64,000 nt of DNA from contig JAIUPH010000006.1 of the NCBI GenBank assembly GCA_020161065.1, forward strand, positions 1 through 64,000, written 5' to 3'. Numbering within the stretch: position 1 is the stretch's first letter; each line of letters begins with the position of its first letter. The notes under the pieces were generated by a model. It worked only from the letters and a program-made list of their open reading frames with translations. It was not told the DNA's origin and did not search any database. The DNA is from Pseudomonadota bacterium. GTDB taxonomy: Bacteria; Pseudomonadota; Gammaproteobacteria; Burkholderiales; Burkholderiaceae_C. The translations under genes and the position numbers were made by a program. Below are positions 26,883-33,448 of this stretch, in pieces.

Positions 26883-26897
26883 CTAGTACGCTAGTAC
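26883..26897 (+). promoter_or_regulatory. direct repeat CTAGTAC-G-CTAGTAC upstream of MarR gene
   Basis: Two identical heptamers (26883-26889 and 26891-26897) occur 66 bases before the MarR-type gene. They may be a regulator site or part of the promoter; only the repeat itself is certain. Confidence 0.35.
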
Positions 26898-26908
26898 ACG
26901 ATCAGCAC

Positions 26909-26950
26909 GGTTTCCTTTTTTCGGTTTCCTTTTTTCGGTTTCCCTTTTTG
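26909..26950 (+). repeat. 14-bp tandem repeat, three copies, before MarR gene
   Basis: GGTTTCCTTTTTTC is present at 26909 and 26923 and, with two changes, at 26937 (GGTTTCCCTTTTTG). The array ends 12 bases before the ATG of the MarR-family gene and occupies the place of its leader and ribosome binding site. Its pyrimidine tracts stand out in a GC-rich genome. Confidence 0.9.
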
Positions 26951-26962
26951 CGAGCGCCCGAC

Positions 26963-27451
26963 ATGGCCCCGAAAGTCCACGCCCCCAAGACGCCCGACGG
27001 CATCGACATCGACTGGGAGCTGCGCCTGGGCTTTCTGATCCACGACGTGTCGCGCCTGCGCCGCAACGCCTTCGACCGCTCGGTCAAGTCGCTCAACGTG
27101 ACGCGCTCGCAGTGGTGGGTGATGGCCTACCTGTCGCGCAACGACGGCATGACGCAATCGCGCCTGGCCGAGGAGCTCGATCTCGGCAAGGTCGCCATCG
27201 GCGGCCTGCTCGACCGGCTGGAGCGCGCCAAGCTCGTGCGCCGCGAGGCCGACGAGTCCGACCGCCGCATCAACCGCGTCTTCCTCGAACCGGCCGGCCA
27301 CAAGCTGGTGGCGCGGCTGCGCAAGGTCAGCCAGGAGCACAACGACGAGATCCTGGCCGGGCTCAGCCTCGACATGCTGGAGTGCACGGCGACGACGCTC
27401 AACGCCATCAAGCACCGGCTGATCGCCAAGCTGCAGACGCTGCCGACCTGA
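26963..27451 (+). CDS. MarR-family transcriptional regulator
   Basis: A 162-residue winged-helix regulator. The domain runs from about 15 to 150 with VTRSQWWVMAYLSRNDGM, the helix-turn-helix TQSRLAEELDLGKVAIGGLLDRLE and the wing VRREADESDRRINRVFLE, including the conserved D-x-R-x-x-R wing pattern. MarR proteins are usually repressors released by small phenolic or oxidising ligands. The ATG at 26963 lies at the family start; a TTG 15 bases upstream is possible. It precedes the octapeptide-repeat gene on the same strand, with a dyad between them that could be its operator. Confidence 0.93.
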   Translation: MAPKVHAPKTPDGIDIDWELRLGFLIHDVSRLRRNAFDRSVKSLNVTRSQWWVMAYLSRNDGMTQSRLAEELDLGKVAIGGLLDRLERAKLVRREADESDRRINRVFLEPAGHKLVARLRKVSQEHNDEILAGLSLDMLECTATTLNAIKHRLIAKLQTLPT

Positions 27452-27483
27452 GGCGGCGGCGGCCGCCGCGGCGGCGCCCCCCC

Positions 27484-27535
27484 GAACGCGCGATCCCGAA
27501 CGCGCGATCCCGAACGCGCCCCGAACGCGCCCGCC
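27484..27535 (+). repeat. tandem CCCGAACGCGC(GAT) repeat
   Basis: CCCGAACGCGC recurs four times within about 50 bases just after the MarR gene, twice followed by GAT. The units are out of any gene. The block separates the regulator from the promoter region of the octapeptide-repeat protein. Confidence 0.7.
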
Positions 27536-27576
27536 CAAGCCTGAATTGGCCGGGTTTCGGCCCGTTTCATCGCGCC

Positions 27577-27601
27577 TTGACAAGACTTGTTTCACAACAA
27601 G
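27577..27601 (+). promoter_or_regulatory. TTGACA box and dyad CTTGTT-TCAC-AACAAG
   Basis: A consensus-like TTGACA (27577-27582) is followed by a perfect 6-bp dyad (27586-27591 and 27596-27601). The dyad would lie between -35 and -10, a good place for repression. A matching -10 is weak (AAGATG), so promoter assignment is tentative. The MarR-type protein encoded just upstream is the natural candidate binder. Confidence 0.45.
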
Positions 27602-27724
27602 ATGGCGGCGCCCCCAGCTTTCACTCAAGCCGGAGCGCACGCGGCCGAAACCCCCGTCGACGTCGGGAGTGACAGCCGACGCCCAAAACGTCCGCGCTGC
27701 GCGGCACGTCCACGAGGGAACCGC

Positions 27725-30700
27725 ATGACCACGATCACCAGCTTCAAGTCCTACACCGTCGAACAGATCGCGACGCTGTCGGCCGACGACATCAAGACGG
27801 CCAACTCGGCAGCCGTCAAGACGTTGAGTGCCGACCAGATCAAGGCCTTGTCGCCGGAACAGATCGCGGCCTTCGGCAACACCGGCTCCGGCTACGACCC
27901 CTCGGTCATCACCGCGTTCAGCGGCTCGCAGCTGGCGGCGTTCACGCCGTACCAGGCGCAGTTCGGCTTCACCACCGGGCAGATCACGGCGCTCAGCTCC
28001 ACGCAGCTGAAGTCGCTGTCGTCCAGCCAGCTGGCGGTGATGAGCTACGACCAGATCGACGCCATCCAGACCGCCGACGTGCAGGCGCTGTCGACGACGC
28101 AGCTGAAGGCGCTGTCGGCCGAGCAGATCCGCGCGCTGGAAGACAACGCCGGCGACCAGCTCAGCGCCTCGCAGGTGGCCGCGCTGTCGGGCGACCAGCT
28201 CGACGCCGTCACCGAGTTCAGCACGGCGCAGATCAAGGCCTTGTCGGCCAAGCAGGTGCAGTCGCTGTCGGAAGAGCAGCTGCGCAGCCTGACGCCCACG
28301 CAGGTGGGCGCCTTCACGTCGACGCAGGTGCAGGCGCTGACCAGCAGCCAGCTCAGCGCCATCGACGTGCTCGGCAGCCAGGTCGGCTACCTCAACACCA
28401 AGCAGCTGACCGGCCTCACCACCGACCAGCTGCAGTCGATCGGCAGCGCCCAGGTCGGCGCGCTCACCGCCTCGCAGATCAAGGTGCTGTCCACCGCGCA
28501 GGTGGCCGCGCTCACCGACACCCAGGTCAGCAACCTCAGCGCCAACCAGATGCGCGCGCTGACCAACGCCCAGGTCGGCGCGCTGACCACGGCGCAGATC
28601 GGCGCGCTGTCGGCGTCCAACGTCGGCGTGCTCAACACGGCGCAGATCCAGTCGCTCACCGCGGCGCAGGTGCAGTCGCTGTCCGACGAGCAGATGGGCG
28701 CGCTCATCAACGGCCAGGTCGCGGCGCTGAAGACCAACCAGATCAACCAGCTCAGCAACGACCAGATCGCCGCGCTGTCGACCTCGGCGATTGCCGCGCT
28801 CACCACCGCGCAGGTGCGGGCGCTCGGCACCGACCAGTTGCAAAGCCTGTCCGACGCCCAGCTCGGCGCGCTGACCACCGCCCAGGTGCGGGCGCTGTCG
28901 GCCGATGCCAGCGGCATCGGCGCGCTCGCCGGCGACCGCGTGGCCGCGCTCAGCACGGCGGCGGTGCGCGCGCTCACCACCACGCAGGTGGCGGCGCTGT
29001 CGTCGGACCAGATCACGCGCCTCACCGCCACCCAGGCGGCGGCGATGTCGGCGGCCCAGGTGCTGGCGTTGTCGGCCGACGCCAACGGCATTGGCGCGCT
29101 CACCAACGACCAGGTGGCGGCGCTGTCGACCTCGGCCATCGCGGCGCTGAAGACCAACCAGATCCAGGCGTTGTCGACCGAGCAGATCCAGTCGCTCAGC
29201 GACGGCCAGATGGCCAAGCTCAGCTCGACCGCGGCGCGCCAGCTCTCGGGCAGCCAGTTGCAGGTGCTGGCCTACACCACCGTGCAGGCGCTGCTGCCCA
29301 CGCTGCAGGCCAACCAGGTGGCGGCGCTGACCACCGACCAGGTGCAGTCGCTGACCACCTCGCAGGTGCGCGCGCTGACCACCGGCCAGATCGCCGCGCT
29401 GACCAGCGACCAGGTGGGCGCCTTGAGCACCGGCCAGATCAACGCGCTGACCACGGCGCAGGCGCGCGCGCTGAGCACCGACCCCACCACCGGCCAGATC
29501 CAGGCGCTCAGCAACGAGCAGGTGGCCGCCTTCAGCACCGCCGCCATCGCCGCGCTGAAGACCGACCAGGTGCGCAGCCTGAGCACCGAGCAGATCCGCA
29601 GCCTGAGCGACGCCCAGGCCGCCAGCCTGACCGGCGCCTCGGTGGCCGCGCTGTCGGCCAACCAGGTGAAGGCGCTGGAGCAGGCCGACCTGGTGGCGCT
29701 GCAGTCGAAGATCCAGACCAGCCAGATCGGCTCGCTCACCGGCGACCAGCTGCAGTCGCTGACCACCGCGCAGGTGGCCGCCTTCACGACCAGCCAGCTG
29801 GCCTCGATGGGCACCGCCCAGCTCAGCCTGCTGTCGTCCACCCAGGCCGCGGCGCTGACCACGGCGCAGGTGCGCGCGCTCAGCAACACGCAGCTGCAAA
29901 GCCTCAGCACCGACGCGGTGGCCGCCTTGAGCACCGGCGCCGTGGCGGCGCTGTCGACCTCGCAGGTGGCCTCGCTCAGCACCGAGCAGATCCGTTCGCT
30001 CACCAACGACCAGGTCGACAGCCTGACCAGCGTGCAGGTGCGCGCGCTCACCGCCAACCAGGTGAAGGCGCTGGAGGCCTACGACGTCGGCGCCGTCAAG
30101 AGCGTGCTGCAGACCAACCAGGTGCAGGCGCTGTCGGCCAACCAGCTCAGCGGCCTGGGCAACGACGTCTCGGCGCTGACCACCAGCCAGGTGCGCGCGA
30201 TGACCACCGGCCAGATCGCGCTGATGACCTACGGCCAGATCGCCGCGCTCTCCACCGCCCAGGTGCGCGCGATGAGCAGCGCGCAGCTGCAGCAGCTCAA
30301 CGCCGGCCAGATCGGCGCCATGGAAGTGGCCGACGTGCAGGCGCTGCAGACCGACCAGCTCGGCGCCTTCTCGTCGACGCAGCTCCAGTTCCTCGGCTCG
30401 ACGCAGGTGCAGGCGCTGAGCAGCACGCAGCTGCGCGCGCTCGACGCCGGCCAGCTGGGCGCGGTGATCGGCAACATGGCCACCGGCCAGATCGCCAAGC
30501 TCACCACCGGCCAGGTGCAGGGCCTGAGCACCACCCAGCTGCAGGGGCTGACCAACAGCCAGATCGGCGCCTTCTCGCAGACCCAGCTGCGCGCGCTCGA
30601 CCAGACGCAGCTGGCGGTGCTCAACGACATCGCCGCCGCGGCCGACATCGCCAAGCTGGGCGTCGACCAGATCAGCGGCCTCAGCAACGCCGTGCTCGGC

Positions 30701-31429
30701 GGGCTGACCACGCGCCAGATCAACGCGCTGAACTCCGACCAGATGCAGGCGCTCAGCAACGCCCAGGTGGGCCTGATCGCGGCGCGCATGTCCGACCTCA
30801 GCGAGCTGTCGAACACGCAGACCGCGGCGCTCGACTTCACGACGCTGAAGGACAGCCAGCTCGCCACGCTGACCGACACCCAGGTGCAGGCGCTGACCGC
30901 CACGCAGCTGCAGGCCACGCTGGCCAACCCGGCCGACAGCGTGCTGCAGACGCTGGGCGCGCGCGTGGCCACGCTCAGCGGCACGCAGATCACGGCGCTG
31001 GGCACCAACATCAGCGGCATCAGCGACACGCAGGCCGGCCAGCTCACCGGCGCGCAGCTGCGCTCGCTCAGCAACGCGCAGCTCGGCGCCTTCACCGCCA
31101 ACCAGGTGCAGGCCGTCGACGTGACCGAGCTGCTGAACACGCAGGTGGCGTCGCTCGACGTCACCAAGCTGGGCGACTCGCAGGTCGGCGACCTCACGTC
31201 GACGCAGTTGCGCGCGCTGTCCACGTCGCAGATCGGCGACCTCTCGGCCACGCAGCTCGGCGCGATCGACGGTTCGCTGGTCAGCGAGTTCACGCTCAGC
31301 CAGGTGGGCGCGATGGATGCCACGCAGATCGGCGCGCTCAGCAGCTACGCGACCAACCTCACCGACGACCAGAAGGACGCCATCCTGGCATCGCTGGGCG
31401 CCACCGCCTACGCGACCTTGTTCCCTTGA
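27725..31429 (+). CDS. giant Ser/Thr-rich octapeptide-repeat protein
   Basis: A 1234-residue protein made almost entirely of octads with consensus A-L-[ST]-[ST]-x-Q-[IV]-x, for example ALTTAQVR, ALSTEQIQ and ALTTDQVQ. Length corresponds to about 150 octads, some degenerate (ADASGIGAL and ADANGIGAL inserts, longer spacers). Leu and Val/Ile spacing suggests a regular solenoid, but the fold is unknown. There is no signal peptide, transmembrane helix, LPXTG or GGxGxD repeat; the C-terminus (DDQKDAILASLGATAYATLF) is non-repetitive. Similar repeats occur in proteins loosely labelled heme utilisation or adhesion proteins. ATG 27725 has GAGGGAA upstream. The next gene encodes an O-GlcNAc transferase, and each octad offers about two Ser/Thr, so it may be that enzyme's substrate (inference). 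Confidence 0.85.
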   Translation: MTTITSFKSYTVEQIATLSADDIKTANSAAVKTLSADQIKALSPEQIAAFGNTGSGYDPSVITAFSGSQLAAFTPYQAQFGFTTGQITALSSTQLKSLSSSQLAVMSYDQIDAIQTADVQALSTTQLKALSAEQIRALEDNAGDQLSASQVAALSGDQLDAVTEFSTAQIKALSAKQVQSLSEEQLRSLTPTQVGAFTSTQVQALTSSQLSAIDVLGSQVGYLNTKQLTGLTTDQLQSIGSAQVGALTASQIKVLSTAQVAALTDTQVSNLSANQMRALTNAQVGALTTAQIGALSASNVGVLNTAQIQSLTAAQVQSLSDEQMGALINGQVAALKTNQINQLSNDQIAALSTSAIAALTTAQVRALGTDQLQSLSDAQLGALTTAQVRALSADASGIGALAGDRVAALSTAAVRALTTTQVAALSSDQITRLTATQAAAMSAAQVLALSADANGIGALTNDQVAALSTSAIAALKTNQIQALSTEQIQSLSDGQMAKLSSTAARQLSGSQLQVLAYTTVQALLPTLQANQVAALTTDQVQSLTTSQVRALTTGQIAALTSDQVGALSTGQINALTTAQARALSTDPTTGQIQALSNEQVAAFSTAAIAALKTDQVRSLSTEQIRSLSDAQAASLTGASVAALSANQVKALEQADLVALQSKIQTSQIGSLTGDQLQSLTTAQVAAFTTSQLASMGTAQLSLLSSTQAAALTTAQVRALSNTQLQSLSTDAVAALSTGAVAALSTSQVASLSTEQIRSLTNDQVDSLTSVQVRALTANQVKALEAYDVGAVKSVLQTNQVQALSANQLSGLGNDVSALTTSQVRAMTTGQIALMTYGQIAALSTAQVRAMSSAQLQQLNAGQIGAMEVADVQALQTDQLGAFSSTQLQFLGSTQVQALSSTQLRALDAGQLGAVIGNMATGQIAKLTTGQVQGLSTTQLQGLTNSQIGAFSQTQLRALDQTQLAVLNDIAAAADIAKLGVDQISGLSNAVLGGLTTRQINALNSDQMQALSNAQVGLIAARMSDLSELSNTQTAALDFTTLKDSQLATLTDTQVQALTATQLQATLANPADSVLQTLGARVATLSGTQITALGTNISGISDTQAGQLTGAQLRSLSNAQLGAFTANQVQAVDVTELLNTQVASLDVTKLGDSQVGDLTSTQLRALSTSQIGDLSATQLGAIDGSLVSEFTLSQVGAMDATQIGALSSYATNLTDDQKDAILASLGATAYATLFP

Positions 31430-31440
31430 TCGTGACGTGA

Positions 31441-31594
31441 CGGCCCCCGGCCGCCTGGCGGCCGCCCCCCAAGGGGGCACCGAACCCGACCGGGAGACCC
31501 GGATCGGGTTCGGCCCGCTAACATCGCCGCTCCCCCTGGCCGCCGGTGGCGGCCTGTCCCCGAGGGGACCGCGTTTCATGCGTCGGGGGGTCGC
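31441..31594 (+). repeat. dispersed intergenic repeat, copy B (inverted relative to copy A)
   Basis: The reverse complement of this block matches 17854-18085 nearly base for base over its core, including GCGGGCCGAACCCGATCC and the terminal GGCCGGGGGCCGTCA. It contains one copy of the unit that is duplicated in copy A. It fills most of the 189-base gap between the octapeptide gene and the O-GlcNAc transferase gene. Confidence 0.85.
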
Positions 31595-31618
31595 CTTGAG
31601 CGCGGTGGAGCCAGCAGG

Positions 31619-33448
31619 ATGAACGAGAACAGCGAGGAGGACGCGGAGCGGACGTTCGCGCAGGCCGTGCAGCAGGCCTGGAGCGGCCAGCTCGGCGTGA
31701 TGCCGCTGTTCGAGGCCGCCAACGGCCTGGCGGCGCGCGGCCGCAACGGCTACGCCGCGGTGCTGTACCAGACCTGGCTGCGGCGCTGCCGCAGCGCGCA
31801 CCACCACCTGGTGTGGTTCAACCTCGGCGTGCTGCTGTTCACCGAGGGCGACTTCGCCGGCGCGCGCGACGCCTATGCCGAGGCGCTGCACCTGGCGCCC
31901 GACTTCCTGCAGCCGCGCTTCAACCTCGGGCTCACCTACGAGCGCCTGGGCCAGGCCGACGCCGCCACCGCGCAGTGGCTGCAGTTGCGCACCCAGGCCG
32001 ACGCGGCCAACCCCGAGCACCAGCCGCTGCTGCTGCTGGCGCTGAACAACCTCGGGCGCCATTACGAGGACCATGGCCGTTATGCCGAGGCGCTGGACGC
32101 ACTGACGCAAAGCCTGCGCCTCGCGCCGGCGCAGCCCGACGTCATCCACCACTGGGTGTTCCTGCGCGCCAAGCAATGCCTGTGGCCGGTGTACCAGCCG
32201 CTGCCCGGGCTGGACGAGGCGGCGCTGCGCCGCCACACCTCGGCGCTGGCGATGATCAGCCTGTCGGAAGACCCGCAGGCCCAGCTCGACGCCGCGCGCC
32301 AGTACGTGCAGAGCAAGCTCACGCTGGACGTGCCGCGGCTGGCGCCCGAGCGGCCTTACGCCGGCCATGAGCGCATCCGTATCGCCTATTGCTCGGGCGA
32401 CTTCTGCCTGCACCCGGTGGCGATGCTGACGGTCGAACTGCTGGCACTGCACGACCGCAGCCGCTTCGAGGTGTTCGCCTTCGACTGGAGCCGCGAAGAC
32501 GGCTCCGAGCTGCGCCAGCGCGTGGTCGACGCCGTCGACCACTTCGAGCGCATCCATGCGCTCAGCGACGAGCAGGCGGCGCGGCTGATCCGCAGCCGCG
32601 AGATCGACGTGCTGATCGACCTGCAAGGCCAGACGCTCGGCGCCCGCGCCAACATGCTGGCCTGGCGGCCGGCGCCGATCCAGATCACCTACCTCGGGCT
32701 GCCGGCGACCACCGGGCTGCCCTTCATCGACCACGTGATTGCCGACCGCGTGCTGATCCCAGAGGCGGAAGCCGCGTTCTATTCCGAGAAGCCGCTGTAC
32801 CTGCCCGACGTCTACCAGGCCAGCGACCGCCAGCGCAAGAGCACCCCGCCGCCGGCGCGCGCGGCCTGCGGGCTGCCGGAAGAGGCCTTCGTCTTCTGCT
32901 CGTTCAACAACAACTACAAGATCACGCCGGAGATGTTCACGGCCTGGATGAACATCCTGCGCCGCGTGCCCGGCAGCGTGCTGTGGCTGCTGGCCGACAA
33001 CGTGTGGGCGCAGGAGAACCTGCGCCGCGAGGCGGGCTTGCGCGGCGTCGACGGCGCGCGCCTGGTGTTTGCCCCGCGGGCGCTGCCGCCGGATTACCTG
33101 GCGCGTTACGCGGTGGCCGACCTGTTCCTCGACGCCTACCCCTTCAACGGCGGCACCACGGCCAACGACGCGCTGTGGATGGGCCTGCCGGTGCTGACGC
33201 GCAGCGGCCGCACCTTCGCCTCGCGCATGGCCGCGGCGCTGCTGACGGCGGCCGGGCTGCCCGAGCTGATCACCACCGACGTGCACGCCTACGAAGACCA
33301 GGCCGTGCGGCTGGCCACCAGCGCCGGCGCCTGCGCCGGCTTGCGCGCCCGGCTCGGACAGGTGCGCGCCGACGGCGTGCTGTTCGACACGCCGCGCTTC
33401 GTGCGCCAGCTGGAGCAGGCCATCGAGGGGCTGGTGAAGGCCGGCTGA
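31619..33448 (+). CDS. SPINDLY/OGT-type O-GlcNAc transferase with TPR domain
   Basis: A 609-residue GT41-family glycosyltransferase. Residues about 60-190 hold three TPR-like repeats (for example FNLGVLLFTEGDFAGARDAY). The catalytic half has the two family lobes: GDFCLHPVAML with His 265 where OGT-type enzymes have GDFxxHP, then FNNNYKITPEMF with Lys 434 matching the UDP-binding Lys, and DAYPFNGGTTANDALWMG, the conserved sugar-nucleotide motif. GT41 enzymes add N-acetylglucosamine (or another sugar) to Ser/Thr of proteins in the cytoplasm. The ATG follows CAGCAGG closely. It lies 189 bases after the octapeptide-repeat gene, the obvious candidate acceptor. Confidence 0.93.
   Translation: MNENSEEDAERTFAQAVQQAWSGQLGVMPLFEAANGLAARGRNGYAAVLYQTWLRRCRSAHHHLVWFNLGVLLFTEGDFAGARDAYAEALHLAPDFLQPRFNLGLTYERLGQADAATAQWLQLRTQADAANPEHQPLLLLALNNLGRHYEDHGRYAEALDALTQSLRLAPAQPDVIHHWVFLRAKQCLWPVYQPLPGLDEAALRRHTSALAMISLSEDPQAQLDAARQYVQSKLTLDVPRLAPERPYAGHERIRIAYCSGDFCLHPVAMLTVELLALHDRSRFEVFAFDWSREDGSELRQRVVDAVDHFERIHALSDEQAARLIRSREIDVLIDLQGQTLGARANMLAWRPAPIQITYLGLPATTGLPFIDHVIADRVLIPEAEAAFYSEKPLYLPDVYQASDRQRKSTPPPARAACGLPEEAFVFCSFNNNYKITPEMFTAWMNILRRVPGSVLWLLADNVWAQENLRREAGLRGVDGARLVFAPRALPPDYLARYAVADLFLDAYPFNGGTTANDALWMGLPVLTRSGRTFASRMAAALLTAAGLPELITTDVHAYEDQAVRLATSAGACAGLRARLGQVRADGVLFDTPRFVRQLEQAIEGLVKAG

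What the first reader, a model, noticed from the sequence alone, without database searches (positions are those of the whole stretch)
26963..33448. Octapeptide mega-repeat protein next to an O-GlcNAc transferase
A 1234-residue protein of about 150 Ser/Thr-containing octads (A-L-[ST]-[ST]-x-Q-[IV]-x) lies between a MarR regulator and a SPINDLY/OGT-type enzyme with intact catalytic residues. About two Ser/Thr per octad would offer some hundreds of acceptor sites. The idea that the repeat protein is a densely glycosylated substrate, possibly a surface or matrix fibre, is inference; no secretion signal is obvious.
Basis: partly seen in the sequence, partly recalled or inferred. Interest (0 to 1): 0.88.

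Follow-up and report, generated by a model that had tools for sequence, protein, structure and literature searches.

The report
Octad-repeat fibre protein with sugar-transferase partner
A bacterial gene pair encodes a long rod-like protein built of about 137 eight-residue units and a sugar-adding enzyme, and the same pairing recurs in many other bacteria, which points to a rod decorated with sugars before it leaves the cell, although no sugar has been measured.

Summary
ORF 27725-31429 encodes 1234 aa with 137 octads (Pfam PF20080, ALTTAQ repeat); 31619-33448 is a TPR + GT41 enzyme. Linkage is not universal. AlphaFold predicts one short helix per octad. Position-3 Ser/Thr is the N-cap, common with or without GT41. 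Position 4 is Ser/Thr-rich mainly where GT41 is adjacent (0.74 v 0.50), though this depends on how 16 proteins are coded. Relatives show a hidden period near 3.4 octads, a superhelix. Neighbours include type I secretion or flagellar genes. Best reading: a dedicated glycosyltransferase-substrate cassette for an exported solenoid fibre. Glycosylation, donor and, here, exporter are inferred. Both families are known; no print of their pairing was found in the library searched.

The parts
26963..27451 (+). MarR-family regulator, probably incidental: I noted no MarR gene directly beside the other pairs (read by eye)
   Evidence: PF12802 1e-14, PF01047 3.3e-11; neighbourhoods
27725..31429 (+). ALTTAQ octad-repeat solenoid protein, 1234 aa, 137 parsed octads, no Pfam domain other than the repeat that I take as real
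   Evidence: AlphaFold models of residues 1-480 (pLDDT 90.4) and 761-1234 (pLDDT 87.1); residues 481-760 were not modelled
31316..31426 (+). C-terminal cap of about three longer helices (residues about 1198-1234), recognisable in four of the five orthologues aligned (the fifth is cut by unknown bases)
   Evidence: helices 439-451, 454-464, 466-472 of the second model; ortholog alignment
31430..31618 (+). 189-bp gap between the two genes; no terminator-like or promoter-like site found in it
   Evidence: same order and strand with gaps of 77-163 bp in 11 related loci
31619..33448 (+). TPR + GT41 (OGT-like) glycosyltransferase, 609 aa, no signal peptide evident
   Evidence: PF13844 7.1e-81 plus TPR families; XcOGT alignment; tree

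Best explanation
The two genes form a dedicated glycosyltransferase-substrate cassette. The repeat protein folds as a rod: each octad is a short helix, capped by the position-3 Ser/Thr and the position-6 Gln, and about 3.4 octads make one turn of a superhelix (seen clearly in relatives, only weakly in this irregular member). In the cytoplasm the neighbouring OGT-like enzyme attaches a sugar to Ser/Thr on the first helical turn, mainly position 4 and perhaps 5. The rod then leaves the cell without a signal peptide through a one-step exporter, type I secretion in many relatives and an unidentified or flagellar route here, and serves as a surface or matrix fibre. Shown: repeats, predicted fold, recurrent adjacency, co-occurrence, a position-4 bias, exporter genes beside related pairs. 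Inferred: the sugar transfer itself, the donor sugar, the export, the surface role.
For: Of 17 genome contigs relatives of the GT41 (49-70% identity) 12 have an ALTTAQ ORF upstream on the same strand: 11 directly, 77-163 bp away, and L064 with a second GT41 between; 2 more start at a contig edge, 3 lack it. Genus sample of 60: 31 of 31 ALTTAQ genomes have GT41, 18 of 29 others do, p 1e-4. Phylum sample of 397: GT41 in 14 of 15 genomes with 20 or more ALTTAQ hits v 114 of 382, p 8.6e-7, not corrected for kinship. Position-4 Ser/Thr: 33 linked proteins median 0.74, 12 unlinked 0.50, p 0.0017; near-copies thinned (28 v 9) p 0.009; position 3 is not higher in linked proteins. Helix begins at octad position 4 in 50 of 55 octads. 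Period 3.3-3.5 octads in 37 of 61 proteins v 4 of 100 octad-order shuffles. Type I secretion genes beside the pair (by gene order 26, 39); GT41-ABC-HlyD gene order in 8 of 11 genus GT41 stretches fetched (Pfam for one). The GT41 tree puts the window enzyme with ALTTAQ-adjacent enzymes of Pseudomonas and Accumulibacter/Propionivibrio, not with its genus.
Against: No modification data. Linkage is partial: in the genus the listed ALTTAQ and GT41 places (capped lists) are mostly on different contigs; 34 of 60 listed plasmid ALTTAQ records have no listed GT41 within 10 kb; G397 has a full ALTTAQ gene and no GT41 match in its genome. The position-4 result rests on 45 of 61 proteins; if the 16 left out (GT41 in the genome but not adjacent) count as unlinked, medians are 0.74 v 0.65, p 0.055. 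Rhizobiaceae alone p 0.054. The window protein (0.47) and its five orthologues (0.47-0.63) are low for linked proteins; Shinella L129 is linked at 0.14; L117 and L122 are unlinked at about 0.80. Window genome: no HlyD over the type I cut-off, no near relative of the genus exporter.
Confidence: 0.52

Rival explanations
1. The GT41 acts on flagellin or another surface protein, and the repeat gene is merely a neighbour in surface-glycan or flagellar glycosylation islands.
For: Flagellar genes lie near the pair in 7 of the 12 linked loci (Pfam check of four of these seven); in the window genome a different GT41 lies next to flagellin; relative L059 has GT41 beside FliS and no ALTTAQ gene in the stretch held.
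Against: The pair recurs beside type I exporters, where I saw no flagellar gene; I saw none near the window pair (20-42 kb called); same order and short gap in 11 loci; position-4 Ser/Thr tends to follow GT41 adjacency.
Confidence: 0.22
2. The repeat protein is a structural solenoid whose Ser/Thr are only helix caps and first-turn residues; it is unglycosylated, and GT41 linkage reflects another shared surface function.
For: Position 3 is Ser/Thr whether or not GT41 is adjacent and is the predicted N-cap; Thr and Ser are also acceptable at the first helical residue (recalled); many ALTTAQ genes have no GT41 in the fetched stretch; the position-4 effect is p 0.055 under one coding.
Against: Several proteins without adjacent GT41 use more Ala and Pro at position 4 (G397, G356b, L118, L123, L124, L131, L134), while most linked ones use Thr and Ser.
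Confidence: 0.14
3. The repeat protein stays in the cytoplasm as a scaffold or regulator that binds the TPR domain of the GT41.
For: No signal peptide evident; no type I exporter recognised in the window genome; stable adjacency.
Against: Type I exporter genes beside several pairs and in genus GT41 gene clusters; lengths up to 5401 aa suit a fibre better than a regulator.
Confidence: 0.1

Closest known systems
ALTTAQ repeat family, Pfam PF20080
   Same: The window protein is a full-length member (E 1.2e-176)
   Different: No paper in the library holds the string ALTTAQ; the GT41 link, octad helix geometry and 3.4-octad period are reported here from sequence and prediction
GT41 O-GlcNAc transferases (XcOGT, human OGT)
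   Same: TPR plus Glyco_transf_41; best solved relative XcOGT 2jlb
   Different: Donor unknown; encoded beside a repeat protein
HMW1A-HMW1C (adhesin plus cytoplasmic GT41-family enzyme)
   Same: A large exported protein with a partner glycosyltransferase (PMC3012730 and PMC3983070: start of abstract in the search listing)
   Different: HMW1 is glycosylated on Asn and uses two-partner secretion (same listing); here Ser/Thr octads and type I or unknown export; NGTferase model 33.6 bits against a cut-off of 1000
FlmG flagellin O-glycosyltransferase of Caulobacter
   Same: Soluble TPR + GT-B enzyme that modifies flagellin before export (PMC7591256: part of the abstract and passages)
   Different: Substrate is flagellin and the sugar pseudaminic acid; FlmG was not aligned here
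HeliScrew4 (PDB 9zem)
   Same: Octads of similar pattern matched by sequence, E 7.4e-14
   Different: 120 aa, name suggests a designed protein; position 4 is often Pro; its structure was not seen, no paper found, and it was not among the 50 Foldseek rows shown
Mesothelin superhelix
   Same: Foldseek match of probability up to 1.00, short-helix solenoid (PMC10035497: passages including part of the abstract)
   Different: TM at most 0.41; 24 short helices in nine layers; an analogy only

Membership tests
PF20080 ALTTAQ repeat | Profile match over the curated cut-off | tested here: met
   572.5 bits v 26.4, 37 stretches
GT41 (PF13844) | Both halves of the catalytic domain matched, over cut-off | tested here: met
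   272.5 bits v 25, two stretches; separate N and C matches
GT41 (PF13844) | Histidine and lysine of the active site conserved (XcOGT H218, K388; roles recalled) | tested here: met
   H265 and K434 align
GT41 O-GlcNAc transferase | Transfers GlcNAc to Ser/Thr | not testable with these tools
   needs biochemistry
HMW1C-type N-glucosyltransferase | Match to NGTferase model over cut-off | tested here: not met
   33.6 bits v 1000
Type I secretion substrate | Cognate ABC, HlyD and outer-membrane genes in the genome | tested here: inconclusive
   window genome: HlyD best 103.1 bits v 208.65, ABC best 28% identity, one C39-type ABC with an HlyD-like neighbour on C3; the genus HlyD was not scored against that model (one search failed). 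Type I genes are beside the pair in G377, L060, G104 and two plasmids
Type I secretion substrate | C-terminal uncleaved secretion signal | not testable with these tools
   the C-terminus is predicted as a helical cap
Flagellar export substrate | N-terminal export signal recognised by the flagellar exporter | not testable with these tools
   only neighbourhood evidence

The most novel reading that the evidence does not exclude
ALTTAQ proteins are an undescribed class of glycosylated extracellular solenoid fibre, each with its own OGT-like enzyme, exported without a signal peptide by whichever one-step machine the lineage offers: type I secretion in some, the flagellar export apparatus in the window's lineage. 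Reading the fetched stretches by eye I saw no locus with both kinds of neighbour.
Probability: 0.2. Interest if true: 0.85.

Novelty: new variant of a known kind. Interest (0 to 1): 0.7.

Why it matters
Bacterial OGT-like enzymes are common (128 of 397 genomes in the phylum sample), and most have no known substrate (recalled). A recurrent gene pair names one that can be tested, and a position within the repeat to look at. The repeat itself appears to be a simple helical rod with a measurable 3.4-unit twist, of use to those who study or design repeat proteins. The Cereibacter sphaeroides 2.4.1 pair, and Caulobacter vibrioides, which rang for both families among the control genomes, make it testable in laboratory organisms.

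Tried and rejected
Rejected: the 2131-aa antisense ORF as a gene; Pfam side hits of the repeat protein (CAAP1, DUF4351, AvrM_N) as cross-matches of a repetitive sequence; LRR and variable lymphocyte receptor hits in PDB as Leu-rich likeness; the MarR gene as part of the system. G229's weak ALTTAQ-like ORF and L079 gene 6 were dropped before the counts from then on; Polaromonas L132 fell under the 20-motif threshold and was not counted. Phage collection: no match. Paper searches that gave nothing on the pair; some searches gave context only. The library misses most subscription journals.

Weak points. The position-4 test used 45 of the 61 ALTTAQ proteins held (33 linked, 12 unlinked). The 16 left out come from genomes with GT41 that was not in the fetched stretch (8 genus, 8 family-f55 proteins; position 4 from 0.47 to 0.94). 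Counted as unlinked they take the test to 0.74 v 0.65, p 0.055; counted as linked, p 0.0005; near-copies thinned, p 0.009. 'Unlinked' means no GT41 in the fetched stretch; only for G397 was the genome searched without a match, and G356, source of one unlinked protein, has GT41 elsewhere. 'Linked' includes G037, whose GT41 is about 9 kb away. The loci are a chosen set, not a random sample, and are related. The shuffles used the 20 longest proteins, five each. The 3.4 period stays in 36 of 61 when multiples of 17 are left out; the window protein gives 3.17 with a weak peak, most of the family-f55 proteins tested without type I neighbours give 2.0, others give other values.

Full report
What is there. 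The window holds MarR (26963-27451), a 1234-aa repeat protein (27725-31429) and a 609-aa TPR + GT41 enzyme (31619-33448), all on the + strand. The repeat protein belongs to Pfam PF20080, 'ALTTAQ repeat'. A parse finds 137 octads over 1096 residues, with Leu at 2, Ser/Thr at 3, Gln at 6 and Val/Ile/Leu at 7. Octad periodicity is far above composition shuffles. The enzyme's closest solved relative is XcOGT; it is far below the HMW1C-type N-glycosyltransferase cut-off. The window genome has this one ALTTAQ locus and four GT41 genes.

Fold. AlphaFold with six sequences (window and five orthologues) gives residues 1-480 at mean pLDDT 90.4, pTM 0.75, and with five sequences residues 761-1234 at 87.1, pTM 0.61, weak in the first 50 residues. 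Fifty of 55 octads begin their helix at position 4, so position 3 is the N-cap, position 4 the first helical residue and position 6 the third, as in a capping box (recalled motif). A protein with a solved structure named HeliScrew4 matches by sequence; I did not see its structure. Foldseek gives mesothelin, another short-helix solenoid, at low TM. Of 16 proteins tested, most of the longer ones have their top lags among 7, 10, 17, 24, 27 or 34 octads, 17 most often; the window protein and two orthologues peak at lags 1 to 5. A periodogram gives 3.3-3.5 octads per turn in 37 of 61 proteins, 36 when multiples of 17 are left out, against 4 of 100 octad-order shuffles. The window protein, broken by short insertions, gives only a weak 3.17.

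Linkage. In 60 genomes of the genus, 31 have ALTTAQ and all 31 have GT41, against 18 of the other 29 (Fisher p 1e-4). In 397 genomes of the phylum, 24 match ALTTAQ, 20 over cut-off, and 128 have GT41. Of the 15 with 20 or more hits (window genome included) 14 have GT41; of the 20 over cut-off 15 do. Ten of those 15 are from one family (f55, of another class than the window's), so the tests overstate independence. Beside the window genome, G377, G356, G104, G132, G093, G100, G156 and G452 have both genes within about 5 kb. Among 17 relatives of the window's GT41, 12 have an ALTTAQ gene upstream (11 directly, L064 with a second GT41 between), 2 are at contig edges and 3 lack it. On plasmids, 26 of the 60 ALTTAQ records listed have a listed GT41 within 10 kb, 11 of them Cereibacter sphaeroides (counted by hand; 25 GT41 records and one ALTTAQ record were not listed, and four of the 60 look like chance matches).

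Against linkage: in the genus most listed places of the two families are on different contigs (capped lists, many contigs short); 34 of 60 plasmid records show no listed GT41 nearby; G397 has a full ALTTAQ gene and no GT41 match.

Which Ser/Thr. If GT41 modifies the repeats, exposed Ser/Thr should follow GT41 and structural ones should not. Position 4 is Ser/Thr in a median 0.74 (0.78 with the full parse) of octads in 33 linked proteins against 0.50 (0.51) in 12 unlinked ones (p 0.0017; 0.0022), while position 3 is 0.76 v 0.78 (p 0.17; 0.19). G397 is 0.26, with Ala and Pro commonest. Exceptions: L129 linked at 0.14, L117 and L122 unlinked at about 0.80. Rhizobiaceae alone: p 0.054. Sixteen proteins whose genome has GT41 elsewhere were left out; coded as unlinked they weaken the test to p 0.055, coded as linked they give p 0.0005. 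The bias is thus suggestive, not proof. The window protein is 0.47, with 64 Ser/Thr at position 4, 48 at 5 and 103 at 3; 'some hundreds of acceptors' is likely too many.

Export. No signal peptide is evident by eye. In G377 an ABC, HlyD and TolC set stands two genes from the repeat gene, all three over the NCBIfam type I cut-offs; in L060 and G104 the HlyD is over its cut-off and the ABC is HlyB-like but under it. Cereibacter plasmid pA and a Pseudomonas plasmid are annotated with such genes beside the pair; G132, G093 and G100 show the same gene order as G104 (not scanned). Of 11 genus stretches with GT41 that I fetched, picked largely by match pattern, 8 have GT41-ABC-HlyD order; L045, L080 and L086 do not (Pfam for one). 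In the window's own clade the neighbours are flagellar instead: 7 of the 12 linked loci (L049, L050, L055, L056, L062 by Pfam; L058 and L065 by likeness to L050 and L056); also Pseudorhizobium and Rhodovastum. The window genome has flagellin beside another GT41 and no type I adaptor over cut-off, though the genus adaptor was not scored against that model. The route here is open.

Origin. The GT41 tree puts the window enzyme with those of Pseudomonas, Accumulibacter/Propionivibrio and a proteobacterial MAG, all ALTTAQ-adjacent, and away from the genus GT41-ABC-HlyD clade (quick method). Of nine genus relatives fetched at the gspE-like gene, two show moeA on the other side without the TctC-MarR-ALTTAQ-GT41 block; the rest have other genes or contig ends there. 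This fits gain of the pair as a cassette.

Verdict. A real, recurrent pairing of a helical octad-repeat rod with an OGT-like enzyme, most simply a dedicated glycosylation system. Chemistry and location remain to be shown. Both families are known; I found no description of the pairing in the open-licence library searched.

Noticed in passing
L060:10472-11287; L046:11709-12533; L080:7272-8102: Proteins of 271-276 aa with no Pfam match and similar starts sit beside ALTTAQ, GT41 or type I exporter genes; likeness judged by eye.
   Followed up: partly
L039 (G156:C92) and GT41 places of G124, G140, G144, G164: GT41 open frames of about 2400-3800 aa, several with more than one catalytic match, in one family (f55) of another class.
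   Followed up: no
L103, L107, L108 and the G156 ALTTAQ protein (L039/L040): ALTTAQ proteins of family f55 that show an octad period of 2.0 instead of 3.4.
   Followed up: no
L129:8944-11094: Degenerate ALTTAQ protein of Shinella sp. PSBB067 with few position-4 Ser/Thr, still next to a GT41 gene.
   Followed up: no
L070:6543-9803: Own-genome flagellin next to a different GT41 gene, perhaps a flagellin glycosyltransferase.
   Followed up: partly
window 26891-33286 (-): A 2131-aa antisense open frame across all three genes, put down to third-codon G+C near 0.99.
   Followed up: yes
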